Source of the DNA: a virus
Length of the DNA: 64,000 nucleotides
Reading direction: 5' to 3' (one strand)
Virus record (IMG/VR): IMGVR_UViG_3300050821_002963
Location: 62,001-126,000 of that record
Part shown: positions 4,636 to 45,417 of the stretch, piece after piece
Position numbering within the stretch: position 1 is the first letter of the stretch
How the letters are laid out: the number at the start of each line of letters is the position of its first letter
Position numbers and translations under genes: made by a program
Notes under the pieces: generated by a model
What the model saw: only the letters and a program-made list of their open reading frames with translations
Databases searched by the model: none
Told to the model about the DNA's origin: nothing

Positions 4636-5982
4636 ATGACGGTTTACAAAAATAGAACGGGATTAATGATTGGCGTTCCGCTGAGCGGTAATCCGCTGGT
4701 GCCGGAATGGGCATTTGCTTTCCATCAGTTGCATCCACCGATGGACTATAACGTTGAGTATGCCATGATTAAGTTCAGGCCGGTAGATGAAGCAAGGCAA
4801 ATCATGGCTGAGAATGCGGTATCGAAAGGGTGTAAGTATCTTTTCTTCATAGATGAGGACACTACGCCTCCAGCTCACACGTTGAGACAGCTTATCTACC
4901 ATCTGGAGCACTGGGACAATGCAGCGGTAGCGGCTGGCATCTATTGCCACAAGTCTCAGCCTTGCATGCCGATGGTGTTTAGAGGTAACGGAGCTGGACC
5001 TTACTGGGATTGGAAAGTGGGAGAAGTATTCGATTGCTCGGGAGTTGGAATGGGTTGTGCTCTTATCAGAGTGGACGCACTGAAGACCATTCCGAAGCCA
5101 TGGTTCAAGACGGTGGACTCGGTAGAAGCTTTCATGGAGAACATTCCACAGGGTGAGATGTGGACGGAAGACTTGTATTTCTGCGACAAGATTCTCAAAG
5201 CTACAGGAGAGGGTGTACCGGAAGGCGGTTGGAATATCCTGGCAGATGGGGGAATACTTCCGAATCACTGGGATGCAAAGACTGGGCAGAGTTACAATCT
5301 TCCACCAACAGCCAAGCCACTGAGACCGGTCAACTGGCAGGAAGGGACGAAGAAGATTGTGGACTTGGGTTGCGGTGAGCCGGAGAACAGCTACAACACG
5401 GAAGAAGGAAAGGTGTTGCGGGTGGACATCCGGGAAGAAGTCAAGCCGGATTATAGATGCGACCTGAGGAAGCTGCCCTTCGCAACAAAAGAATTCGACA
5501 TAGTCTTTTCCAGTCATGTATTGGAACACTTTGCTAGGAACGAGACAAAGGCTGTACTGGACGAGTGGATTCGGATTCTCAAAGAAGATGGTGAGCTGAG
5601 ACTGGTGCTACCGAATCTGGAGTGGGCGGCTCAGCATGTGATGAACAAGGAGATAGACACGGATGTAATGAATGTGTTCTATGGAGCGCAGAGCTACAAT
5701 GAGAATTTTCACAAGACTGGGTTTACGCCACAGATCATCGAGCAGCTACTGGCAGAGCGGGGGTTTAAGAAGTTCGTATGGGACTTCCACAATTACCACA
5801 TGTTTGTCAGAGCGTGGAAGATTGAGCCGGCGGAATCCATAGCAGCTATGCAAGTGAATCCAATAGTCAGACAGAAGACGGAGTTCGAGAAGTTGGGCGA
5901 ACCGATGTTGGAGAAAGTTCAGGAAATAAAAACAGAGAACACCAATCAGCCTTTGGAAATAGAGGTTCCAGCAGGAGACTAA
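4636..5982 (+). CDS. Glycosyltransferase (GT-A) fused to a SAM-dependent methyltransferase
   Basis: 448 residues with two domains. Residues about 1-215 are a GT-A fold: KGCKYLFFIDEDTTPP carries a D-E-D metal/nucleotide-sugar motif (residues 73-75), and GEMWTEDLYFCDKI fits the catalytic-acid region. Residues about 235-400 are a class I methyltransferase of the Methyltransf_11 type: KIVDLGCGEPE (motif I, 241-251), LRVDIREE (motif II), then FDIVFSSHVLEHF. The C-terminal 50 residues are a charged tail. The fusion suggests that one glycan receives a sugar and a methyl group in sequence. Acceptor unknown. Confidence 0.8.
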   Translation: MTVYKNRTGLMIGVPLSGNPLVPEWAFAFHQLHPPMDYNVEYAMIKFRPVDEARQIMAENAVSKGCKYLFFIDEDTTPPAHTLRQLIYHLEHWDNAAVAAGIYCHKSQPCMPMVFRGNGAGPYWDWKVGEVFDCSGVGMGCALIRVDALKTIPKPWFKTVDSVEAFMENIPQGEMWTEDLYFCDKILKATGEGVPEGGWNILADGGILPNHWDAKTGQSYNLPPTAKPLRPVNWQEGTKKIVDLGCGEPENSYNTEEGKVLRVDIREEVKPDYRCDLRKLPFATKEFDIVFSSHVLEHFARNETKAVLDEWIRILKEDGELRLVLPNLEWAAQHVMNKEIDTDVMNVFYGAQSYNENFHKTGFTPQIIEQLLAERGFKKFVWDFHNYHMFVRAWKIEPAESIAAMQVNPIVRQKTEFEKLGEPMLEKVQEIKTENTNQPLEIEVPAGD

Positions 5983-35727: not shown

Positions 35728-35979
35728 ATGAAGGTTATTATCTGGACAACAGATGAGGACGGTAACAAGGAGAAAGCTGGTACGATCTATCTGAATGATG
35801 GGAAGGTTGTCCAGAAGATAGTGCCTGGAAATGAACGTGTGATGAGGATGGTTTGGTCAGAGCCAGTACTGACATCAGCCGGAGACGAGATAGACAGGGA
35901 ACAGGATTCCGAGAAGTGGTTGAAGGCATTGCCTTTGAACTACATGGGACACAGATTGAGTGCGGAGCCGGTTGAATGA
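35728..35979 (+). CDS. Small hypothetical protein
   Basis: 83 residues from ATG 35728, one base after the previous stop. MKVIIWTTDEDGNKEKAGTI then LNDGKVVQKIVPGNERV is a beta-hairpin-rich start typical of small phage proteins; the second half contains EPVLTSAGDEIDREQDSEKW. Precedes the kinase-like gene with an ATGA overlap. Confidence 0.5.
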   Translation: MKVIIWTTDEDGNKEKAGTIYLNDGKVVQKIVPGNERVMRMVWSEPVLTSAGDEIDREQDSEKWLKALPLNYMGHRLSAEPVE

Positions 35980-37133
35980 ACTTAGCTTCTGCTATTTCCA
36001 TCTACGCCTTTGGCACGGCCGAAGGGGCTGTGAAGGGATGGGATACAAGAGGGCGTGGCCGTGCACCTAGACCACCAGCAAAGCCTCGTCCTTTCAAAAC
36101 GGCACCTGGCAAAGCTGGTGGATACTTTAAGCCTGGAAGTATTGCTGCTAGACTGTATGAGGATTTGGCAGTGAATCCGGGCAGATGGTTCTCTAGAAAA
36201 GAGTTGAGGGAAAAATACCAGGTTGGTGGCTTGCTACAAGCCTTGATGCAGTTGCAGAGGGCTGGGGTAGAAAAAGGAAAATGGGATATAGAATTCAGGC
36301 GGAACAACGGGTTCGTTAGGCTGGTTCCTAGAATAGAACATAGGCAGGGAGAAGATTCTCCGATTCAGTCTCCAAAGGATAAAAGTCAGGCAGAGTACAA
36401 TCTTTTTCACATGGCTATTGTGAAAAAGGATGAGCTGGGTGGCGGCGTAACACCTTCGTACAAAGTTAAGTTGGAAGATGGCAGCGTAGCTGTAATGAAG
36501 TATCCCTACAACGGTGTATTCGGTCCGGCGAGAGATAATATTCCTTTGAAGGGAGAACCGGAGAGGGAAGCGGGAGCCTGGCAAGTAGCGAAGGTAGTGG
36601 GCATGCAGGATTTGGTTCCGCCGACTGTAGTTAGAGAGGTAGACGGAAAAGCAGCTTCTCTACAGCTATGGACTGGTGGTAGACAGGCAGAAGCTGCGGG
36701 CAATCCGTTTGATGGGATGCAAGATAGAGCTAGAGTGGCGGCCTTCGATTACGTAATTGGCAATGAGGATAGGCACAAAGGCAACTGGTTGGTTGATAAT
36801 GAAGGAAAGATACATCTTATTGACCATGGTCTATCTTTTCCGCAAGGACAGTGGAACGCGAAATTCAACTCCAAGTTCGTAAGAAGGATGGCAGAGCAGG
36901 AAGATATATCGGAGCAGTATAAACCAAAAGTACAGGGGCAAGTATTCTCCGAGAATCAAGAAAAGATAGTCTCAGCCCTAAAAGGTGTTGGCTTGGGACA
37001 AGATGAGATACGTGGAGTAAAGGAAAGAATTGCTAATATGGCAGCCGCGAAAGAGTGGGACGACCTTCCAGAACTAAAGCGGAGAGGAATTGGGAGAGGA
37101 CAGGGTAGGCCTTGGGCTAAGGGTGGCGACTAG
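35976..37133 (+). CDS. Leader-tagged kinase-like (HipA/PI3K-fold) protein
   Basis: 385 residues. MNLASAISIYAFG is the leader, followed by a basic Pro-rich linker and a winged-helix-like part (RWFSRKELREKYQVGGLLQA). The C-terminal domain has kinase-fold hallmarks: SVAVMKYPYNGVFGPAR (nucleotide Lys), RVAAFDYVIGNEDRHKGNW (catalytic loop D-R-H-x-x-N) and KIHLIDHGLSFPQG (Mg-binding D in I-D-H-G). Similar domains occur in HipA-type toxins and phage effectors. Protein or nucleotide substrate unknown. Confidence 0.7.
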   Translation: MNLASAISIYAFGTAEGAVKGWDTRGRGRAPRPPAKPRPFKTAPGKAGGYFKPGSIAARLYEDLAVNPGRWFSRKELREKYQVGGLLQALMQLQRAGVEKGKWDIEFRRNNGFVRLVPRIEHRQGEDSPIQSPKDKSQAEYNLFHMAIVKKDELGGGVTPSYKVKLEDGSVAVMKYPYNGVFGPARDNIPLKGEPEREAGAWQVAKVVGMQDLVPPTVVREVDGKAASLQLWTGGRQAEAAGNPFDGMQDRARVAAFDYVIGNEDRHKGNWLVDNEGKIHLIDHGLSFPQGQWNAKFNSKFVRRMAEQEDISEQYKPKVQGQVFSENQEKIVSALKGVGLGQDEIRGVKERIANMAAAKEWDDLPELKRRGIGRGQGRPWAKGGD

Positions 37134-37869: not shown

Positions 37870-38304
37870 ATGGCGGTATACGAAAGAACGTACGAGCTTA
37901 CCAGTTGTCATTTTAACGGCGAATCAGTCTACAAAGACTACTACGAAGCTCAAGAAGCAGCCAAGGCAGGGGACTTCACGAAAGCATATGCCCTGTTGCT
38001 AGCTGTCCTACCAGCAAGTCACGGACACAATTTCAAAGTAAAGATAACGGCAACTGGTTTGATAGACATCAAGACGGGCTACGTTATTGACGATTACGAA
38101 TTGGAGAAGATGATTCGTAAGTACGATAATGTAAATCTGTCAACGTTGGAAGAGTTTGGTGGGGCTGGTGTCAGGGCCACGACAGAAAATCTAGCTGTAA
38201 CGTTCTGGCACATGATAAAAGAATGTTTTCCAAAGTGCCGAGTGCAAGTGGATGTATGGGAGACAGAGCAAATCTGTGCCAGATATGGAGATTCAGTCGA
38301 ATGA
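37870..38304 (+). CDS. queD: QueD-like 6-carboxytetrahydropterin synthase
   Basis: 144 residues; GGAGGGAAGAG before ATG. SCHFNGESVYKDYYEAQEAA, HGHNFKVKITATGLID and DYELEKMIRKYDNVNLSTLE with ATTENLAVTFWHMI follow the PTPS/QueD order (zinc His residues in H...HGH, then DN...T-x-E-N-x-A). This is the second step of 7-deazaguanine (preQ0) synthesis from GTP. Another QueD homologue lies at 46788; this one is the more diverged. Confidence 0.75.
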   Translation: MAVYERTYELTSCHFNGESVYKDYYEAQEAAKAGDFTKAYALLLAVLPASHGHNFKVKITATGLIDIKTGYVIDDYELEKMIRKYDNVNLSTLEEFGGAGVRATTENLAVTFWHMIKECFPKCRVQVDVWETEQICARYGDSVE

Positions 38305-39150: not shown

Positions 39151-39831
39151 ATGAAGCCAACAGCAGTGGTCTTGCTCAGCGGTGGAATGGATTCAGCGGT
39201 ACTTCTCTGGCATGTGAAAGCAAGCGGAAAGGTTCCTTTCGCTCTATCCTTTGACTACGGTCAGAGACACGTCTGCGAACTGGAGAGGGCGGCGGAGTTG
39301 GCGGAGATTGCGGAAGTGTCATGGGTGGCAGCAAACTTGCAGCCTATTCAGCCATTGATTTCGAAGGGCTCCCAGACGGGTGTGGATCTTCCACCGGATG
39401 GACATTACACAGAGATGTCGATGAAGACGACTATCGTTCCGAATAGAAACGCCATCATGCTCTCGATAGCGGTTGGGTTTGCCATCGCGCATGAGATGGA
39501 GCATGTGTACTACGCTGCGCATGGGGGAGACCATACGATCTATCCGGATTGTCGGCCAGAGTTCTTCGATGCTTTCAGTCGGGCAATGATATTGGGGAAT
39601 GGCTGGGACCTAATTAATCTGCACGCTCCTTTCATCCACAGGACCAAAGAAGGGTTGGTAAGGCTTGGGACGGAGCTGGGCGTTCCTTTCGAGAAGACGT
39701 GGTCTTGCTATAAGGGCAGTGGGCAGAACCACTGTGGTACTTGTGGAACATGCGTCGAGAGGCGGGAGGCATTCCAATTGGCGAAGGTTCCGGACCCGAC
39801 TCAGTACGAAGCCGAGTTCGTGAAAAAATAG
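39151..39831 (+). CDS. queC: 7-cyano-7-deazaguanine (preQ0) synthase QueC
   Basis: 226 residues. VVLLSGGMDSAVLLWHVKAS (PP-loop SGGMDS, residues 10-15), FALSFDYGQRHVCELERA and GQNHCGTCGTCVERREAFQ (zinc cysteines) are diagnostic. Converts 7-carboxy-7-deazaguanine to preQ0 with ATP and ammonia. Together with QueD and QueE (50506) it supplies the base for DNA or RNA modification. Confidence 0.92.
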   Translation: MKPTAVVLLSGGMDSAVLLWHVKASGKVPFALSFDYGQRHVCELERAAELAEIAEVSWVAANLQPIQPLISKGSQTGVDLPPDGHYTEMSMKTTIVPNRNAIMLSIAVGFAIAHEMEHVYYAAHGGDHTIYPDCRPEFFDAFSRAMILGNGWDLINLHAPFIHRTKEGLVRLGTELGVPFEKTWSCYKGSGQNHCGTCGTCVERREAFQLAKVPDPTQYEAEFVKK

Positions 39832-39885: not shown

Positions 39886-39958
39886 ACTCGGTGGGCCGGA
39901 TGGTTAGCGTTATCCTTCAAAGATAAAAATGCTGGCCAGTAGTCTTTGTCTACCGAGT
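39886..39958 (+). ncRNA. Y RNA 1 (minimal, hairpin loop CTTCAAA)
   Basis: P1 stem 39886-39892 with 39952-39958 (ACTCGGT/ACCGAGT); conserved GGGCCGGA 39893-39900 facing TTTGTCT 39945-39951; P2 39902-39908 with 39931-39937 (GGTTAGC/GCTGGCC); then TTATC-CTTCAAA-GATAA (39910-39926) and AAAT. This is the Ro60-binding stem and GUUAUC element of Y RNAs (human Y1: CCGAAG, helix, GUUAUC). No tRNA body. The 7-base loop equals the anticodon loop of the UCA tRNA at 40451. Confidence 0.85.
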
Positions 39959-39969
39959 AAGATTTTGTG

Positions 39970-40127
39970 GCGTGGGGCCGGATGTGAATCGTTATCAGAG
40001 GAACTGCTGCCCGCAAGGGCGTGGGGGTTCGAGTCCCTTCCCTCCCGACGAATTGACGGGAGGTGGCGGAAAGGTAGACGCGGCAGTAAGCCGAAAGGCA
40101 TATCGGTTCCAAAAATTAGTCTCACGC
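39970..40127 (+). ncRNA. Y RNA 2 with circularly permuted tRNA-Leu-like body
   Basis: P1 GCGTG 39970-39974 / CACGC 40123-40127; GGGCCGGA 39975-39982; P2 GAATCG 39986-39991 / CGGTTC 40104-40109; TTATC 39992-39996; TTAGTCT before P1'. Inserted tRNA parts are in the order: loop half AGAGGA, stem ACTGC (40003-40007), long variable arm, T-arm with TTCGAGT, acceptor CCTCCCG (40041-40047), 9-base loop, CGGGAGG (40057-40063), TG, D-arm (GCGGAAAGGTAGACGC), stem GCAGT (40083-40087), then GCC-GAAA-GGC. Acceptor and anticodon stems pair perfectly. The class II body and GAG triplet point to Leu. Confidence 0.85.
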
Positions 40128-40148
40128 TTTTAATTCAAGGAGGACGTC

Positions 40149-40460
40149 ATGGATTTTTGCATCTGTAAGGCAAGTAAGGTTTGGTTGCTGAAGAAAGATG
40201 GTTGAATCTTCCGGGTGTCTTTCAGTCGGGCAGTTATCGACTTACTGAGGCGGAAGGTCGGAACGAAGTATCAAATCCAGCGCGGCAAGTTGGTGGTTGG
40301 AAAGAAATTGGAAGAGAAAGAAGAATCTAGTTCTGGATTGTACGTTGTGGCCAGCACGAAGGATGGTAAGCCATTGAGGGTCGCAACGGATAGGCGGGTT
40401 GCGGAAGTGTTGGTGGATGGGCATTACAGATATTTGGCAGAGGGCTTTCTACTCCGGTAG
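40149..40460 (+). CDS. Small protein gene with an in-frame UGA (readthrough or recoding candidate)
   Basis: ATG 40149 has a strong site AAGGAGGACGTC. The frame reads MDFCICKASKVWLLKKDG, then TGA (40203-40205), then IFRVSFSRAVIDLLRRKVG and on to 40460 in the same frame. The part after the stop (GLYVVASTKDGKPLRVATDR etc.) is well-formed coding sequence, and its only alternative start, GTG 40215, lacks a good ribosome-binding site. The UCA tRNA starts at 40451. Either the 18-residue peptide is a leader and the 81-residue protein starts at GTG 40215, or UGA is read through. Product unknown. Confidence 0.5.
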
Positions 40461-40523
40461 CTCAACTGGTAGAGCAGTGGCCTTCAAAGCCGACGGGTGC
40501 GGGTTCAAGTCCCGCCCGGAGTA
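40451..40523 (+). tRNA. tRNA with anticodon UCA (UGA-decoding, Trp or suppressor)
   Basis: Cloverleaf ACTCCGG (40451-40457)/CCGGAGT (40516-40522), discriminator A, CCA encoded. D-arm GCTCAACTGGTAGAGC, loop CTTCAAA with TCA at 34-36, T-arm GCGGG-TTCAAGT-CCCGC. The anticodon stem GTGGC/GCCGA has a G-A mismatch at 27-43. Decodes UGA; charging (Trp versus other) cannot be told. Class I length excludes selenocysteine tRNA. Confidence 0.9.
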
Positions 40524-40547
40524 CCAAAAACTTTAAGGAGAACGAAC

Positions 40548-40598
40548 ATGGCAAACCTTATAGCGAACACTACTGGAAAGGCCCTTGTGCCTCAGTAG
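40548..40598 (+). CDS. 16-residue leader peptide candidate
   Basis: TTTAAGGAGAACGAAC then ATG 40548, MANLIANTTGKALVPQ, TAG. The strong ribosome-binding site on so short a frame suggests a leader peptide ahead of the gene at 40626 or a relic gene start. Translation unproven. Confidence 0.35.
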   Translation: MANLIANTTGKALVPQ

Positions 40599-40625
40599 GT
40601 ACGCTAAACAGAAAGGAGTTTTGCC

Positions 40626-41315
40626 ATGCGCCCAGATATGGGGCGGTTGATTATTGAGGATGGAAGAAGGGGAGACGGAGGGCCAAAGACCTGTTACGAT
40701 AAGATTCGGAGAGTGGGAGAAGACTACGAAAATCTCCCCAGCTTCGAATCCACGAGTCGCCACAGAAAACAGGACAGCAACTCACAAGGCGACAGGCTTA
40801 ACCCTTTGAAGAGGTATTTGGAATCACAAGTTGGTCGGCCTTGGTCGGAAGTATTTTCTGAAATCTGTGCGGTGAACGATAAGCGGACGATTCGCGGTTA
40901 TCATTTGCTAACGCACCTATTTCAGGATGTAATGGTGGATGGGGTTCAGCGCGGAGACATCGGCGGCTATCAGGATTTTAAAGTTGGACCGGACGGGGTT
41001 CTAAGGAAACACGATTGGCGGAAAACTCGTCGGTATAGCCGGCCTGAGAAGAAAAAGCAGCCGAAAGTTTTCAAGCTCGGTAATGGATGGGAGTATCAGA
41101 AGCTGGAAGGTCTCTGGTTTCGGGTTCACTATCGGACGGACGAAACGGTGATTCCAGGACACTTCACAGAACGGACTTTCAGCTACGGGAAGAAAGCGGA
41201 GTTGAAGTATCGGTATTGGATTAACACCCAGGTAAGAACAGATGTGGTCATGGATGTGAAAGTTTCTTGTGGCCAGAAGGACTTGAAAGAGATTAGAAAA
41301 CTTCTGGCTAAGTAA
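40626..41315 (+). CDS. Conserved phage-type protein, function unknown
   Basis: 229 residues; AAAGGAGTTTTGCC before ATG. The middle NPLKRYLESQVGRPWSEVFS followed by IRGYHLLTHLFQDVMVDGVQ is a recognisable conserved block of an uncharacterised family. A beta-rich part with KPKVFKLGNGWEYQKLEGLW follows. Highly basic. It lies between the UCA tRNA and Y RNA 3, so RNA binding is conceivable. Confidence 0.5.
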   Translation: MRPDMGRLIIEDGRRGDGGPKTCYDKIRRVGEDYENLPSFESTSRHRKQDSNSQGDRLNPLKRYLESQVGRPWSEVFSEICAVNDKRTIRGYHLLTHLFQDVMVDGVQRGDIGGYQDFKVGPDGVLRKHDWRKTRRYSRPEKKKQPKVFKLGNGWEYQKLEGLWFRVHYRTDETVIPGHFTERTFSYGKKAELKYRYWINTQVRTDVVMDVKVSCGQKDLKEIRKLLAK

Positions 41316-41321
41316 AGGTTA

Positions 41322-41462
41322 AGACGCGGGCCGGATGTGGTTGGTTATCGCAAACCAAAGATGTACTTGCGGGTAGCTCAGTTGGCAGAGCCCCCTACGT
41401 AGTAGGGTTGACGTGGGTTCGATTCCCACCCTAAACACCGACTGCGAGATTTGTCTGCGTCT
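41322..41462 (+). ncRNA. Y RNA 3 with tRNA-like body in normal order
   Basis: P1 AGACGC 41322-41327 / GCGTCT 41457-41462; GGGCCGGA from 41328; TTTGTCT 41450-41456; P2 GTTGGT / ACCGAC; TATC...GATG hairpin. It contains D-arm GCTCAGTTGGCAGAGC, hairpin CCCT-ACGTAGT-AGGG and T-arm GTGGG-TTCGATT-CCCAC in the usual tRNA order. The apparent acceptor strands (TTGCGGG and CCTAAAC) do not pair over seven bases, so it is not a plain tRNA; here the Y stem sits at the acceptor end. Confidence 0.65.
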
Positions 41463-41469
41463 AAGTTTT

Positions 41470-41543
41470 GCTCTCGTAACTCAGCGGATTAGAGTGTCAG
41501 CCTTCTAAGCTGAAAGTCGTGAGTTCGAATCTCACCGAGAGCA
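41470..41543 (+). tRNA. tRNA-Arg (UCU)
   Basis: GCTCTCG (41470-41476)/CGAGAGC (41536-41542), discriminator A and encoded CCA. Anticodon arm TCAGC-CTTCTAA-GCTGA, TCT at 34-36. T-arm GTGAG-TTCGAAT-CTCAC. Standard class I tRNA reading AGA/AGG, codons that are heavily used in this genome (many AGA codons in its genes). Confidence 0.95.
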
Positions 41544-41552
41544 CCAGCTGTA

Positions 41553-41604
41553 GTAAGGAGGGCCGGCGGTGTTGAAAGGACACGACAGCGACACCCTCCG
41601 TTAC
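41553..41604 (+). ncRNA. Stable hairpin, possible structured RNA or degenerate Y RNA
   Basis: GTAAGGAGGG (41553-41562) pairs with CCCTCC-G-TTAC (41594-41604), with further pairing GGTGT/ACACC inside. It contains GGGCCGGC, close to the Y-RNA core, but no TTTGTCT partner. Not followed by a T-run, so a terminator is unlikely. It lies between tRNA-Arg and the gene at 41636. Confidence 0.35.
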
Positions 41605-41635
41605 AAAGGCTGCTGGTAGTTGACGCAGAAGAACA

Positions 41636-41896
41636 ATGAAACTAACAAAAGGACCATTAGCGGGCTACAAAGTTGAGATGGCGGAGGGCGAAAAGACTCG
41701 GCAGTATCAGGAAGACGTGGATAAGCTGGTCAACCTGATGGGTTACGAGTGGGCGTTGGTCACGGACTTGAGTAGAATAGGCGACTTCTACACGGATGAG
41801 ACAGATGTGGAGATGCTGTCTCTCAAGTTGGGATTTCCGGTAACACGGAAAGACTATATGTGGGAAGTGGCCATGAGAACGAGGAAAAGTAATTAA
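41636..41896 (+). CDS. Small hypothetical protein
   Basis: 86 residues, preceded by a weak ribosome-binding site (CGCAGAAGAACA). LMGYEWALVTDLSRIGDFYT then LSLKLGFPVTRKDYMWEVA is a compact alpha/beta sequence. Lies between RNA genes. No family recognised. Confidence 0.5.
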   Translation: MKLTKGPLAGYKVEMAEGEKTRQYQEDVDKLVNLMGYEWALVTDLSRIGDFYTDETDVEMLSLKLGFPVTRKDYMWEVAMRTRKSN

Positions 41897-41903
41897 AAGT
41901 TTC

Positions 41904-42039
41904 TGCTGGGGCCGGACTGAATCGGTTATCACAGGTTCGAATCCTGTCTCTCAGCTCGAAAGAGTCTATGAGAGACAAGGCTACAGTCGGTGGCAACATC
42001 GAAGGGTAGCGTTTCCGATTCGAAGTATTTGTCTCAGCA
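41904..42039 (+). ncRNA. Y RNA 4 with T-arm and closed acceptor stem
   Basis: P1 TGCTG 41904-41908 / CAGCA 42035-42039; GGGCCGGA 41909-41916; P2 TGAATCGG 41918-41925 / CCGATTCG 42015-42022; TTATC 41926-41930; TTTGTCT 42028-42034. Directly after TTATC comes a T-arm (ACAGG-TTCGAAT-CCTGT), then CTCTCA (41948-41953) pairing TGAGAG (41969-41974) across a loop that holds CTC-GAAA-GAG. The following part that should be the D-arm is atypical. Confidence 0.8.
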
Positions 42040-42046
42040 TAAGAGA

Positions 42047-42257
42047 TTGCATAGGCCGGAGTTGTGCGTTACCTCAATACATAGAAGGTAGCCGGCTCTT
42101 AAGTTGGCTACACACTGGGTTCTGCCGGCAGTTATTCCGGTGGGCAGGGATAGCCTCCTGTAATTGGCTAGCAAGAGCCAACATCAAAAGTGGAAACCCT
42201 TGCGGTCGGCCTCTTATCGGAGACTGGCTTTTCGCACAGCAATATTTGTCTATGCAA
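42047..42257 (+). ncRNA. Y RNA 5, long form (211 nt) with unassigned insert
   Basis: P1 TTGCAT 42047-42052 / ATGCAA 42252-42257; AGGCCGGA 42053-42060; P2 TTGTGCG 42062-42068 / CGCACAG 42233-42239; TTACC...GGTAG hairpin in the place of TTATC...GATAA; TTTGTCT 42245-42251. About 140 nt of structured insert follows, including GTTGGCT/AGCCAAC long-range pairing and two D-arm-like hairpins (GTAGCC...GGCTAC and TAGCC...GGCTA). No T-loop recognised. Confidence 0.65.
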
Positions 42258-42267
42258 ATGAGTTGGG

Positions 42268-42348
42268 TGCCCATTAGGGTTAGCGTAGCCTGGTTTACGC
42301 GCTGGGACGCCAGAGACGTTGGTTCAAATCCAACACCCTGATGGGCAT
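42268..42348 (+). tRNA. tRNA-like element without an anticodon loop
   Basis: D-arm GCGTAGCCTGGTTTACGC and T-arm GTTGG-TTCAAAT-CCAAC (42318-42334) are canonical and the acceptor TTAGGGT (42274-42280)/ACCCTGA (42335-42341) pairs. TGCCCAT (42268-42274) with ATGGGCA (42341-42347) prolongs it to about 14 pairs. The anticodon arm is only CTGG-GACG-CCAG (12 bases instead of 17), so it cannot decode. No CCA. Pseudo-tRNA, decoy or processing element. Confidence 0.6.
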
Positions 42349-42359
42349 CCTTTAGTTTC

Positions 42360-42485
42360 AGAACGGGCCGGATGAGTTGGGTTATCTACCGAATAGATAC
42401 GTGGGTTCGAATCCCACCGCCGTGGTTCCAAGACGGCGTGGCAGAGTGGCTAATGCGCCCCAGCTTGGTTTCTTTTGTCCGTTCT
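42360..42485 (+). ncRNA. Y RNA 6 with circularly permuted tRNA-Ser-like body
   Basis: P1 AGAAC 42360-42364 / GTTCT 42481-42485; GGGCCGGA 42365-42372; P2 GAGTTGGG 42374-42381 / CCCAGCTT 42459-42466; TATC...GATA hairpin (42383-42399) as the variable arm; T-arm GTGGG-TTCGAAT-CCCAC (42401-42417); CGCCGT (42418-42423), loop GGTTCCAAG, ACGGCG (42433-42438); D-arm GCAGAGTGGCTAATGC. P2 occupies the place of the anticodon stem, so the RNA is a closed-acceptor cloverleaf, as in bacterial YrlA RNAs. Confidence 0.85.
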
Positions 42486-42494
42486 AAAAAGTTT

Positions 42495-42639
42495 GAGTGG
42501 GCCGGATGTGAATCGTTATCTTGTAATCTGCGGGTCGGTGGTTCGAATCCATCTAACGTGAATAAAGTAACGTTATAGCTCAGTTGGCAGAGCAGCAGAA
42601 CCCCGAAAGGGGATTTCGGTTCCAAATATATGTCCACTC
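42495..42639 (+). ncRNA. Y RNA 7 with circularly permuted tRNA-Thr-like body
   Basis: P1 GAGT 42495-42498 / ACTC 42636-42639; GGGCCGGA 42499-42506; P2 GAATCG 42510-42515 / CGGTTC 42617-42622; TTATC 42516-42520. Then TTGTAA, stem TCTGC (42527-42531), GGGTC, T-arm GGTGG-TTCGAAT-CCATC, TAACGT (42554-42559), 10-base loop, ACGTTA (42570-42575), TA, D-arm GCTCAGTTGGCAGAGC, A, stem GCAGA (42595-42599), CCCC-GAAA-GGGG. Re-ordered, it is a near-perfect tRNA-Thr with loop CTTGTAA (UGU). Confidence 0.87.
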
Positions 42640-42653
42640 TTAAGGAAAGGAAT

Positions 42654-42723
42654 CTGGCGGGCCGGTTAGCTACCGTTATCCTCAGGCGATAAAAATGGTG
42701 GCGATGTAGTTTATGTCTGCCAG
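42654..42723 (+). ncRNA. Y RNA 8 (minimal, hairpin loop CTCAGGC)
   Basis: P1 CTGGC 42654-42658 / GCCAG 42719-42723; GGGCCGG 42659-42665; P2 GCTACC 42669-42674 / GGTGGC 42697-42702; TTATC-CTCAGGC-GATAA (42676-42692), AAAT; TTATGTCT 42711-42718. The P2 bases differ from those of Y RNA 1 at several pairs while pairing is kept. The loop resembles that of tRNA-Leu(CAG). Confidence 0.85.
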
Positions 42724-42730
42724 GTAAATT

Positions 42731-42799
42731 TGGTTGGGGCCGGAGTGGGTTGATTATCCTGAAAAGATAAAAGTCGACCTACGTTATATGTCTAAGCCA
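42731..42799 (+). ncRNA. Y RNA 9 (minimal, hairpin loop CTGAAAA)
   Basis: P1 TGGTT 42731-42735 / AAGCCA 42794-42799; GGGCCGGA 42737-42744; P2 GTGGGTTGA 42745-42753 / TCGACCTAC 42774-42782 (nine pairs); TTATC-CTGAAAA-GATAA (42754-42770); TATGTCT 42787-42793. The loop is identical to the anticodon loop of tRNA-Phe(GAA). Confidence 0.85.
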
Positions 42800-42806
42800 T
42801 GAAGTT

Positions 42807-42896
42807 TCAGTGGGGCCGGAGCTGGTTGGTTATCCCATCAAATGAGAAGCGGACTACAATCCGCTTATTATCGACTAGCATTATTTGTCTCACTGA
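42807..42896 (+). ncRNA. Y RNA 10 with an extra anticodon-arm-like hairpin
   Basis: P1 TCAGTG 42807-42812 / CACTGA 42891-42896; GGGCCGGA 42813-42820; P2 GCTGGTTG 42821-42828 / CGACTAGC 42872-42879; TTATC 42830-42834; TTTGTCT 42884-42890. The TTATC hairpin is imperfect (partner GAGAA) and is followed by GCGGA-CTACAA-TCCGC (42849-42864), shaped like an anticodon arm with a 6-base loop. Its end is 28 bases before the rsr start codon. Confidence 0.82.
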
Positions 42897-42923
42897 TTAA
42901 AAAGAAAGAATGGAGAAAAGAAA

Positions 42924-44531
42924 ATGACGTCTTACTTGAACACAGCAGCAAAGAGAGCTGGAGTAGGGCCGGCGCAGTCGGAACCTTTGAATGAAAGACA
43001 AGTTCAGAACTCGGCTGGAGGTTATTCCTTCCCAGTCGATATGTGGGTGCAGTTGGACAGGTTCTTGATTCTCGGTACGGAAGGCGGGTCGTACTACGCC
43101 AGCGAGAAAAAGCTCACGGACAAGAACGTTAAGTCCATAAGGGACTGCATCAAGACAGACGGGTTGCGAACAGTAGCCCGCGTAGTTGAGATTTCGGATG
43201 CCGGTAGGGCACCAAAGAACGACCCGGCACTCTTCGTCTTGGCACTTTGCTCCAAGGCGGATGACCAGAAGACAAGAGCTGCGGCTCTGGATGCGCTACC
43301 AAAGGTGGCAAGAATTGGTACGCACCTTTTCCACTTCGCAGAGTTCAGAACTCAGCTCGGCGGTGGCTGGGGTAAGGGCATGAAGCGGGCCATCTCGAAC
43401 TGGTATCTGGATAGAAGTCCGATGTCCCTCCAGAACCAGTTGGTCAAGTACCAGTCGAGAGATGGCTGGAGCCATAAGGACCTGCTCAAGTTGGGGCATG
43501 TGAATCCTTCGGAAGTGGCACCGGAGAAGCGGGTGGCCTTGGCGTGGGCTGCGGATAAGGCCCCACTGGAATTGTCTCAAGTACCTTTGATTGAGGCGTT
43601 CGAACGGGCCAAGACTCTGAAAGAAAAGTCTCAGGAGAAAGAGCTCATTCAGTTGATTACCCAGTATGAATTGACGAGAGAGATGGTTCCGACAGAAGCT
43701 TTGAACTCTGCTGCTGTGTGGGAAGCTCTTTTGGTCAAGATGCCGATTACGGCTTTGATTCGTAACTTGGGGAACATGACCAAGAACGAATTGCTCAAGC
43801 CAATGTCGGATGCGTGCAAGACGGTGGTCAATAACCTTACCAGCAAGGAAGTTCTGAAAGCTGGTAGAGTGCATCCAATCCAGTTGCTTGTGGCACTGAG
43901 AACTTATGCGTCCGGGCACGGGATGAAGAGTCGTGGAGAAGGTTGGAAGCCTGTCTCAAAGGTGGTGGATGCTTTGGATGAGTCTTACTATCTGGCTTTC
44001 GCCAACGTCGAACCTACGGGCAAGAGATGGTACTTGGGCCTGGACGTTTCCGGTTCCATGTCTGGCGGAAGCATTGCTGGAAGTCCACTGACTCCCTGCG
44101 AAGGGGCAGCCGCGATGAGCATGGTTACGGCCAAGCTGGAAGAAGACTATGAAATCATGGCCTTCGACCAAGGCATCAGGAAGCTTCCTATCACGCCGAA
44201 GATGCGTTTGGACGATATCATGAAGCACACCAAAGACATCAACGGTGGCGGAACAGACTGTGCTTTGCCAATGATAGAAGCGGCGAAGAGAAAAATTCCG
44301 GTGGACATGTTTGTGGTCTACACGGATAGCGAGACGTGGGCTGGGCACATTCATCCGCCCAAGGCGTTGGAGCAGTATAGACAGAAGATGGGCATTCCAG
44401 CCAAGTTGGTAGTTTGTGGAATGCTCGGCAATAACTTTTCCATTGCAGACCCCAATGATGCGGGCATGTTGGACGTGGTAGGTTTTGATACCAACGTGCC
44501 CTTGTTGTTGGCGGACTTTGCAAAGAATTGA
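42924..44531 (+). CDS. rsr: Ro60/Rsr protein (TROVE plus vWA domains)
   Basis: 535 residues; AATGGAGAAAAGAAA before ATG. The N-terminus is a TROVE domain: QVQNSAGGYSFPVDMWVQLD, RFLILGTEGGSYYASEKKLT and DPALFVLALCSKADDQKTRA are its diagnostic blocks (HEAT-repeat ring). The C-terminal vWA domain has the MIDAS motif (WYLGLDVSGSMSGGS), then GGGTDCALPM and FVVYTDSETWAG. Ro60 proteins bind Y RNAs and misfolded RNAs, and in bacteria work with PNPase in RNA decay. Located directly after ten Y RNA genes. Length matches bacterial Rsr. Confidence 0.95.
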   Translation: MTSYLNTAAKRAGVGPAQSEPLNERQVQNSAGGYSFPVDMWVQLDRFLILGTEGGSYYASEKKLTDKNVKSIRDCIKTDGLRTVARVVEISDAGRAPKNDPALFVLALCSKADDQKTRAAALDALPKVARIGTHLFHFAEFRTQLGGGWGKGMKRAISNWYLDRSPMSLQNQLVKYQSRDGWSHKDLLKLGHVNPSEVAPEKRVALAWAADKAPLELSQVPLIEAFERAKTLKEKSQEKELIQLITQYELTREMVPTEALNSAAVWEALLVKMPITALIRNLGNMTKNELLKPMSDACKTVVNNLTSKEVLKAGRVHPIQLLVALRTYASGHGMKSRGEGWKPVSKVVDALDESYYLAFANVEPTGKRWYLGLDVSGSMSGGSIAGSPLTPCEGAAAMSMVTAKLEEDYEIMAFDQGIRKLPITPKMRLDDIMKHTKDINGGGTDCALPMIEAAKRKIPVDMFVVYTDSETWAGHIHPPKALEQYRQKMGIPAKLVVCGMLGNNFSIADPNDAGMLDVVGFDTNVPLLLADFAKN

Positions 44532-44538
44532 ATTCGGC

Positions 44539-44610
44539 ACCTGAGTAGCTCAGTGGTAGAGCAGCGGGCTCATAATCCGTTGGTCGATGGTTCGAATCCA
44601 TCCTCAGGTA
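44539..44610 (+). tRNA. tRNA-Met (CAU)
   Basis: ACCTGAG (44539-44545)/CTCAGGT (44603-44609), discriminator A, CCA encoded. Anticodon loop CTCATAA in GCGGG/TCCGT, T-arm GATGG-TTCGAAT-CCATC. It could be elongator Met or, if C34 is modified to lysidine, Ile; its body has no initiator mark (three G-C pairs in the anticodon stem are lacking). Confidence 0.92.
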
Positions 44611-44626
44611 CCAAAAAATTTCTGTT

Positions 44627-44698
44627 GTGACGGAAGCCAAACGGTGCGGCGGTTGCCTGTGGAGCAATCTCTAGTGGGTTCAACTCCCATCCGTCACC
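44627..44698 (+). tRNA. tRNA-His (GUG)
   Basis: GTGACGG (44627-44633)/CCGTCAC (44691-44697), discriminator C as in His tRNAs, then CCA. Anticodon arm GTTGC-CTGTGGA-GCAAT with GTG. T-arm GTGGG-TTCAACT-CCCAT. Confidence 0.92.
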
Positions 44699-44702
44699 CC
44701 AG

Positions 44703-44773
44703 CGGAGCGTAAGTGGACGGTCGACGGCGTGCTTTGGGAGCACGAGCATGGGGTTCAATTCCCTACGCTCCGA
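44703..44773 (+). tRNA. tRNA-Pro (UGG)
   Basis: CGGAGCG (44703-44709)/CGCTCCG (44766-44772), discriminator A, CCA. Anticodon arm CGTGC-TTTGGGA-GCACG with TGG, T-loop TTCAATT. One base separates it from the CCA of tRNA-His. Confidence 0.92.
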
Positions 44774-44780
44774 CCAAGTC

Positions 44781-45107
44781 GTGCACGGTGCTTAGGTATG
44801 CGCACTGAGACATACCCCTAGCGGGTGAAAGGCCCGCCCAAGCTTGGTTGAGAAAAGCTGACGTTCAGGTTGTGGCAGTTAGCCTGAGTACCTGCGACGA
44901 CTTCGTGGAGGACGTTACAGGGAAAAAACGTGCCATAGGAATGCGGAATGGAAACGTTCCGAAGTCGGTGATGCTAAAACGTGCGAGCGCCCATGTCAGA
45001 CTCAGAGATGAGTGAGGCTGAAGGTCTGGATAAAAGAACTTGACCTCGCTAATGGCCCAGACGCGGATAGCAAAGTCGACGGGGGTTGCGGCTGAACCTT
45101 CGACCAT
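44781..45107 (+). ncRNA. Candidate structured RNA, about 330 nt, family unknown
   Basis: No open frame, but many hairpins: GGTATG/CATACC (44795-44816) with a possible pseudoknot through GCAC, GCGGG/CCCGC (44821-44837), GGAATG-GAAA-CGTTCC (44945-44960), CAGAC.../GTCTG (44997-45028) holding CTCA-GAGA-TGAG, GTCGA/TCGAC (45075-45104) holding GGTT/AACC. It lies between tRNA-Pro and tRNA-Gln, like other large phage RNAs (GOLLD, ROOL), but I see none of their signatures, nor those of RNase P or tmRNA. Confidence 0.5.
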
Positions 45108-45117
45108 AATTTTCTAC

Positions 45118-45188
45118 TCGGTAGTGGGGTAATGGTAGCCCGACTGACTTTGGCTCAGTAGATATTGGTTCGAGTCCAGTCTACCGAG
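45118..45188 (+). tRNA. tRNA-Gln (UUG)
   Basis: TCGGTAG (45118-45124)/CTACCGA (45181-45187) with the U1-A72 pair typical of Gln, discriminator G, CCA. Anticodon arm ACTGA-CTTTGGC-TCAGT with TTG. Confidence 0.92.
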
Positions 45189-45195
45189 CCAATGT

Positions 45196-45268
45196 TCCCC
45201 GATGGTGCAACTGGTAGCATAGCGGGCTCTGAACTCGCAGATACTTGGTTCGAATCCAGTTCGGGGAA
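45196..45268 (+). tRNA. tRNA-Gln (CUG)
   Basis: TCCCCGA (45196-45202)/TCGGGGA (45261-45267), U1-A72, discriminator A, CCA. Anticodon arm GCGGG-CTCTGAA-CTCGC with CTG. A second Gln acceptor, complementing the UUG one. Confidence 0.9.
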
Positions 45269-45277
45269 CCAAAAGTT

Positions 45278-45370
45278 GAGTCGACGGTTTCACCGGCCGC
45301 TGGTAGTCTAGTAGAGAAGAGTACGAACAGCGGGTTATAACCGCCGAGAAGAGCGTGGAATATTCGGCTC
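45278..45370 (+). ncRNA. Candidate small structured RNA (tRNA-sized, no T-loop)
   Basis: GAGTCGA (45278-45284) can pair with TCGGCTC (45364-45370) over seven pairs. Inside are CGGT-TTC-ACCG, CCGCTG.../CAGCGG and GCGG-GTTATAA-CCGC, the last resembling an Ile(UAU) anticodon arm. D- and T-loop signatures are missing, so it is not called a tRNA. Confidence 0.35.
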
Positions 45371-45417
45371 TAATTTTAAGAACGAAGGGAGGTGTTTAGA
45401 AAGTCACTGGAGAGTTT

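What the first reader, a model, noticed from the sequence alone, without database searches (positions are those of the whole stretch)
39886..44531. Phage-encoded Ro60 (Rsr) with an array of ten Y RNA genes
Ten RNA elements share P1, GGGCCGGA / TTTGTCT internal loop, a second stem and TTATC. The P1 and P2 sequences differ from copy to copy, yet all pair (for example P2 GGTTAGC/GCTGGCC, GCTACC/GGTGGC, GTGGGTTGA/TCGACCTAC), which is strong covariation. The pattern matches the Ro60-binding stem of Y RNAs, and the adjacent gene encodes a TROVE plus vWA Ro60 protein. Seven copies stand in near-tandem between 41904 and 42896. Bacteria usually have one or a few Y RNAs; ten in 3 kb beside rsr in a phage-like genome is, to my knowledge, not a described arrangement. 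It suggests an RNA-binding or RNA-decay machine with interchangeable RNA subunits.
Basis: partly seen in the sequence, partly recalled or inferred. Interest (0 to 1): 0.95.

Follow-up and report, generated by a model that had tools for sequence, protein, structure and literature searches.

The report
Phage Ro60 with ten Y RNAs
This tailed phage carries a Ro60 protein gene preceded by ten different Y RNA genes, several shaped like rearranged tRNAs; similar arrays recur in other phages and bacteria, so this is one of the largest examples of a little-described wider phenomenon rather than a unique machine.

Summary
Exactly ten elements lie at 39886-42896, all on the + strand, upstream of an unmistakable Ro60/Rsr gene (42924-44531). 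A covariance model built only from other genomes' Y RNAs ranks these ten as the ten best hits in the 64 kb window (E 4e-5 to 0.6; next hit E 1.8). Each P1 and P2 strand pairs with its own partner, not with other copies' (0 of 100,000 permutations). The rest of the 131.5 kb phage record has no further copy.

The claim that the arrangement is special is only partly right. Phage Rsr with Y RNAs is already in the literature. Among 323 rsr loci surveyed, arrays of 5-8 recur in viruses and bacteria, and two other loci reach about ten (viral L375; Chloroflexi MAG L246).

What looks new is module diversity on one Ro-binding stem: short loops, tRNAs opened at the anticodon loop (classical YrlA), a tRNA inserted in normal order (E3; also in three other viral loci) and one 164-nt domain of unknown type. 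Best reading: one Rsr ring served by interchangeable RNA adaptors. Expression, binding and function are inferred, not shown.

The parts
39886..39958 (+). Y RNA E1, short form (16-nt apical loop)
   Evidence: R3 30.8 bits, E 8e-4 in 64 kb; fold z -5.1; own P1/P2 partners rank first
39969..40128 (+). Y RNA E2 with tRNA-like module opened at the anticodon loop, long variable arm (class II, Leu-like)
   Evidence: R3 15.6 bits, E 0.6, the weakest of the ten; halves rejoined in tRNA order are called a tRNA by ARAGORN, native order is not
41322..41462 (+). Y RNA E3 with a tRNA-like module in normal (collinear) order and reduced anticodon loop
   Evidence: R3 30.5 bits, E 9e-4; Rfam tRNA 31.8 bits above its cut-off at 41372-41431, model positions 6-65
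41904..42039 (+). Y RNA E4: T-arm and acceptor hairpin, atypical D-like hairpin
   Evidence: R3 28.4 bits, E 0.002; fold z -5.2; the rejoined construct is not called a tRNA
42047..42257 (+). Y RNA E5 with a 164-nt apical domain of unknown type
   Evidence: R3 24.0 bits, E 0.015; fold z -3.2; no convincing similarity of the domain elsewhere
42265..42352 (+). Stand-alone tRNA-like element with 17-bp extended acceptor stem and 4-nt anticodon loop, no Ro-binding motif
   Evidence: Rfam tRNA 43 bits at 42274-42342; fold z -6.1; not called by ARAGORN
42360..42485 (+). Y RNA E6 with T-arm, acceptor hairpin and D-arm in permuted order
   Evidence: R3 37.4 bits, E 4e-5, the best of the ten; the rejoined construct is not called a tRNA
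42495..42639 (+). Y RNA E7, permuted tRNA-like module of class I, YrlA-like from end to end
   Evidence: R3 26.0 bits, E 0.006; RF02553 YrlA 31 bits, E 2.5e-5 in a 171-base scan, cut-off 69; the rejoined construct is called a tRNA
42652..42725 (+). Y RNA E8, short form
   Evidence: R3 23.4 bits, E 0.019
42731..42799 (+). Y RNA E9, short form
   Evidence: R3 23.3 bits, E 0.021
42807..42896 (+). Y RNA E10, short form with a hairpin in a 39-nt apical loop
   Evidence: R3 33.2 bits, E 3e-4; fold z -4.3
42924..44531 (+). rsr: Ro60 ortholog, 535 aa, TROVE plus vWA
   Evidence: Pfam; Xenopus Ro60 451.5 bits, human RO60 445.3, Deinococcus Rsr 404.4

Best explanation
A phage-encoded Ro60 ribonucleoprotein system with a set of ten RNA subunits. 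Shown by sequence: an rsr gene; ten co-directional Y RNA genes sharing one Ro-binding stem (P1, CGGA opposite an A/U-rich strand, P2, TTATC) but with different apical modules; all of it in the only tRNA-bearing region of the phage record. Inferred: the array is made as one or a few long transcripts together with tRNAs and is cut into single Y RNAs, since spacers of 6-13 nt leave little room for promoters; each Y RNA occupies the same site on the Rsr ring, so infected cells hold a mixed population of particles; short Y RNAs act as gates, and tRNA-like ones (anticodon removed, T- and D-arms kept) dock host proteins that grip tRNA elbows, such as PNPase or tRNA-maturation enzymes, steering Rsr towards structured or damaged RNA (probably tRNA or rRNA) during infection. 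Identity as Rsr plus Y RNAs: about 0.95. The adaptor mechanism: about 0.45.
For: Top ten hits of an independently built model; 0 of 100,000 swap permutations; 238 of 238 hits on the rsr strand in loci not used for training; covariation 0.584 against 0.233 for shuffles; Ro60 orthology, with the metal-site motif and the K/R of the Y RNA-binding stretch invariant among 15 relatives. Apical modules of several kinds on a constant stem, a pattern seen across 386 distinct elements of 323 loci. [quoted passage not shown]).
Against: No expression, binding or phenotype data. No RNase_PH-type (PNPase), RtcB or RNA_ligase domain was found in the phage, so any partner must come from the host. Module differences could be drift on a constant stem. 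E2 alone is marginal by the model (E 0.6).
Confidence: 0.6

Rival explanations
1. The tRNA-like Y RNAs are decoys or competitive inhibitors of host tRNA-targeting defences (anticodon nucleases and similar), and Rsr mainly stabilises them.
For: The array lies in the phage's tRNA region; a competitive-inhibitor role for YrlA has been suggested (PMC7790460); phage tRNAs evade tRNA-targeting defences (PMC10264068 and PMC11555353, abstracts).
Against: The modules lack a normal anticodon loop, the usual target; YrlA was not cut by the anticodon nuclease in Salmonella (PMC7790460); four of the ten are short and not tRNA-like.
Confidence: 0.2
2. Dosage only: all ten copies do the same job, tethering Rsr to host PNPase for decay of structured RNA, and the number simply raises Y RNA supply.
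For: One constant stem; the Deinococcus precedent; three near-equivalent short copies E1, E8, E9.
Against: Apical modules differ in kind (short, permuted class I and II, collinear, 164-nt), which dosage does not need.
Confidence: 0.2
3. Debris: decayed tRNA genes and recombination products in a tRNA cluster that happen to share stems, without function.
For: Some modules are degenerate tRNAs; tRNA clusters of phages recombine; E2 and E7 share an identical 5' part.
Against: P1 and P2 have changed on both sides yet still pair in every copy; the same stem is found by an outside model, always on the rsr strand.
Confidence: 0.02
4. A cis-acting leader (repeated regulatory or attenuation hairpins) that controls rsr.
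For: The array directly precedes rsr here and in many relatives.
Against: In Gordonia phages Sixama and Mareelih four copies lie downstream of rsr among tRNA genes; in Chloroflexi loci most lie downstream of rsr; promoter-like and terminator-like sites are at chance level.
Confidence: 0.03

Closest known systems
Bacterial YrlA/YrlB Y RNAs with Rsr (Chen et al. 2014, known here only through papers that cite it; Rfam RF02553)
   Same: Located beside rsr, Ro-binding stem, tRNA-like module with T-arm, acceptor hairpin and D-arm (E7 aligns to RF02553 over positions 1-114)
   Different: 31 bits against a cut-off of 69; ten copies instead of one or a few; also a collinear tRNA module and a 164-nt domain
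Deinococcus Rsr - Y RNA - PNPase complex (RYPER)
   Same: Rsr ortholog (2nvo 404 bits) and Y RNAs with tRNA-like arms
   Different: Many Y RNAs; no PNPase-type domain found in the phage; the complex itself is untested
Salmonella rsr-yrlBA-rtcBA RNA repair operon (PMC7790460)
   Same: rsr with several Y RNAs, at least one of them tRNA-like
   Different: No RtcB in the phage record; tRNA genes and ten Y RNAs instead
Listeria phage CKA15 Rsr-like gene with three highly transcribed non-coding regions (PMC12282133)
   Same: Phage Rsr with proposed Y RNAs nearby; the only expression evidence read here
   Different: Three regions, Y RNA identity only proposed by its authors; distant phage
Multi-Y arrays found here: viral contig L375 and Chloroflexi MAG L246
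   Same: About ten Y RNAs at one rsr locus
   Different: Other mixes of modules; in L246 nine of ten lie downstream of rsr

Membership tests
Ro60/Rsr protein | TROVE ring domain | tested here: met
   PF05731, E 3e-42
Ro60/Rsr protein | C-terminal vWA domain with metal-site residues | tested here: met
   PF25045 214.6 bits; D374, S376, S378, T444, D468 invariant among 15 relatives
Ro60/Rsr protein | Basic residues of the Y RNA-binding surface | tested here: met
   VKYQSRDGWSHKDLLKLGH aligns with TKYKQRNGWSHKDLLRLSH of Xenopus Ro60; that these residues bind Y RNA is from memory
Ro60/Rsr protein | Binds Y RNA | not testable with these tools
   Needs a pull-down or in vitro binding
Bacterial Y RNA (Yrl) | Conserved Ro-binding stem beside rsr | tested here: met
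   All ten copies are the top hits of R3; swap test
Bacterial Y RNA (Yrl) | At least one tRNA-like Y RNA per species | tested here: met
   E2 and E7 rejoin to tRNAs; E7 matches YrlA
Rfam YrlA RF02553 | Score above the curated cut-off (69 bits) | tested here: not met
   Best copy 31 bits; filed as Y RNA-like, not as an RF02553 member
[quoted passage not shown]
   No PNPase-type domain in the phage; the host is unknown
rsr-yrlBA-rtcBA operon | RtcB ligase nearby | tested here: not met
   No PF01139 match in the 131.5 kb record; the record may be incomplete

The most novel reading that the evidence does not exclude
Y RNA arrays are a modular adaptor system: a constant Ro60-binding stem carries interchangeable mimics of cellular RNAs (tRNA opened at the anticodon loop, at the acceptor end or in the D loop; 23S rRNA H69-H71 in some bacteria; unknown domains such as that of E5), so that one ring protein is aimed at several partners or substrates at once, and phages such as this one carry a set of their own.
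Probability: 0.35. Interest if true: 0.85.

Novelty: new variant of a known kind. Interest (0 to 1): 0.62.

Why it matters
The role of Ro60-Y RNA particles in bacteria and phages is open. A locus with ten Y RNAs of different apical design on one stem lets the 'tether, gate or decoy' question be tested by comparing modules on a single protein. The survey also indicates that Y RNAs are far more numerous than annotated: cultured phages such as Gordonia phage Sixama carry unannotated copies between their tRNA genes, so experiments need not wait for this uncultured phage.

Tried and rejected
Descriptor scans missed two copies because of strict motifs. The idea that ten copies is unique was dropped after the survey. 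E5's domain as an rRNA or a known phage RNA: no convincing match. RtcB, RNA_ligase and RNase_PH domains in the phage: none found. A stretch of Listeria phage P100 was scanned for Y RNAs: no convincing hit, but the genes tested there were not rsr, so the wrong region was probably read. Sigma-70 promoters and terminators: at chance level. A first BLAST of the 23S-like segment failed on its E-value limit and was repeated. Chen 2014, Sim and Wolin 2018, Wang 2018 and Sim 2020 are not held, so the largest published number of Y RNAs per locus, and any published collinear tRNA module, could not be checked.

Full report
Where it lies. The window is bases 62001-126000 of a 131,524-base virus record. 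The record encodes a portal protein, a DnaB-like helicase, a primase-like protein, a family A DNA polymerase and RecA, so it is a tailed phage. All seven ARAGORN tRNA genes found in the record lie at 40451-45271 of the window, in the same stretch as the array.

The protein. The ORF 42924-44531 (535 aa) is a full-length Ro60: TROVE 145.7 bits and vWA_Ro60 214.6 bits. Among solved structures it matches Xenopus Ro60 (451.5 bits), human RO60 (445.3) and Deinococcus Rsr (404.4) over nearly its whole length. The metal-site residues are invariant in a 15-sequence alignment, as are the K and R of the stretch that aligns with Xenopus TKYKQRNGWSHKDLLRLSH; the H is nearly invariant. In 50,697 phage records, 340 hold a relative, all below 60% identity, mostly actinobacteriophages annotated 'Ro-like RNA binding protein'.

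The RNA elements. Exactly ten + strand elements carry GGCCGG...TTA[TC]C with flanking complementary strands; reversed window sequence gave none. To test pairing without circularity the strands were taken by motif alone and the 3' partners swapped among copies: own partners win for both helices, 0 of 100,000 permutations each. A model was then built without any window sequence: 48 short Y RNAs found beside rsr in other genomes gave R1; R1's 136 matches, all on the rsr strand, with P2 re-registered, gave R3. Across the 136, P1 is 95% paired with two-sided changes at all eight pairs; the covariation score is 0.584 against 0.233 for shuffles and at most 0.24 for slid controls. The alignment was fitted to P1 and to an earlier P2 register, so the P1 count leans towards the structure. 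R3 scanned unfiltered over the window returns the ten copies as hits 1 to 10. The rest of the genome has no hit at E<=1, and a 45 kb Listeria phage stretch reaches only 17.2 bits. R3 on 100 viral rsr loci not used for training gives 238 hits at E<=0.1, every one on the rsr strand. The identification as Y RNAs is secure for the array; E2 taken alone would be marginal.

Anatomy. Above P2 and TTATC the copies diverge. E1, E8 and E9 have 16-nt loops and E10 a 39-nt loop with a hairpin. E2, E6 and E7 carry T-arm, then an acceptor hairpin, then a D-arm: a tRNA opened at its anticodon loop, as in YrlA. E7 aligns to RF02553 from end to end with 31 bits, below the cut-off of 69. Joining the halves of E2 and E7 in tRNA order with a generic loop makes ARAGORN call them tRNAs (E2 with a class II variable arm), while the native order is not called; E6 and E4 fail this test, so for them the tRNA reading rests on arm motifs. 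E3 instead carries D-arm, a reduced anticodon arm and T-arm in normal order; Rfam's tRNA model scores it 31.8 bits, above its cut-off, over positions 6-65. The same design, with tRNA matches above cut-off inside a Y RNA, occurs in L001 (twice, 45.5 and 38.1 bits), L140 (46.9) and L444 (41.2); three of these four also lack the outer acceptor positions. No report of this collinear form is known to me, but the key papers could not be read. E5 has a 164-nt domain; the element folds better than shuffles (z -3.2) and the domain resembles nothing found.

How unusual is it? In 323 rsr loci the descriptor finds 431 elements (score >=36) on the rsr strand and 17 on the other. Of 386 distinct ones, 151 have short loops, 70 are permuted, 87 show only a T-arm and 11 were scored collinear by motif order (some of these are D-loop-opened or misjoined when read by eye). 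R3 counts for selected loci (E<=0.6; all 267 hits on the rsr strand): L246 10, L243 9, L244, L228, L252, L224 and L375 8 each, L301, L280, L282 and L215 7 each. The descriptor gives ten tandem copies at 4641-5978 in viral L375. So ten is at the top of a continuous range, not alone. Gordonia phages Sixama and Mareelih hold at least six, four of them among annotated tRNA genes. Most loci were the best 80 per search and flanks were at most 6-7 kb, so maxima are lower bounds.

Function. [quoted passage not shown]); YrlA has been suggested as a competitive inhibitor of an anticodon nuclease (PMC7790460); TROVE proteins in jumbo phages are discussed with RNA repair (PMC7824862); a Listeria phage has three highly transcribed regions near an Rsr-like gene, proposed to be Y RNAs (PMC12282133). 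In this phage no RtcB, RNA_ligase or RNase_PH domain was found. Short spacers argue for a common precursor that is processed (inference). An adaptor set is favoured over dosage or decoy because the modules differ in kind while the Ro-binding stem is constant, but nothing here measures binding or function.

Verdict. Real, well supported and a striking example. Phage Rsr with Y RNAs as such is known; array size is not unique; module diversity with a collinear tRNA insert is the part that appears new.

Noticed in passing
L222 4396-4581, L224 8322-8525, L230 2909-3078, L233 6824-6994, L237 8031-8193, L247 7723-7969, L257 8120-8297, L263 7763-7973, L265 2212-2380, L266 4951-5193: Bacterial Y RNA-like elements near rsr (mostly Myxococcales and deltaproteobacterial MAGs, also Armatimonadota and Anaerolineae) whose apical module begins with a 23S rRNA H69-H71 sequence (TAACTATAACGGTCCTAAGGTAGCGA or close). 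The L222 segment matches annotated 23S rRNA in nearly all E. coli genomes; R3 finds eight of the ten as Y RNAs, 33.3 to 17.5 bits, E 5e-4 to 0.5. Y RNAs may mimic rRNA as well as tRNA.
   Followed up: partly
L172 5677-5821, L224 8167-8316, L253 5354-5488: A third tRNA topology: apical modules that start with the 3' half of a D-arm and end with its 5' half, as if a tRNA were opened in the D loop.
   Followed up: partly
window 42265-42352: Stand-alone tRNA-like element between E5 and E6: 17-bp extended acceptor stem, 4-nt anticodon loop, fold z -6.1, Rfam tRNA 43 bits, not called by ARAGORN.
   Followed up: partly
L123 4703-8178 (Gordonia phage Sixama, MN484601) and L132 4629-8026 (Gordonia phage Mareelih, OP820470): At least six unannotated Y RNAs each, two upstream of rsr and four among annotated tRNA genes downstream.
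   Followed up: partly
L001 1795-1918: A tRNA-Cys(gca) called by ARAGORN at 1830-1902 lies entirely inside the apical domain of a Y RNA.
   Followed up: partly
window 44777-45117, 41540-41640, 45272-45390: Further non-coding stretches among the tRNA genes that fold somewhat better than shuffles (z -1.7, -2.4, -1.7), with no Rfam match.
   Followed up: partly
window 40451-40526: tRNA with anticodon UCA (reads UGA), named SeC by ARAGORN; possibly a UGA suppressor.
   Followed up: no
window 37870-38304 and 39151-39831; L137 13607-14845; L137 78-1397 and 1963-2868; window 35976-37133: PTPS (QueD-like) and QueC genes close to the array, an adenylosuccinate synthetase-like gene, DNA polymerase A split into two ORFs, and a PI3/PI4-kinase-like protein; the first two may point to modified phage DNA.
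   Followed up: no
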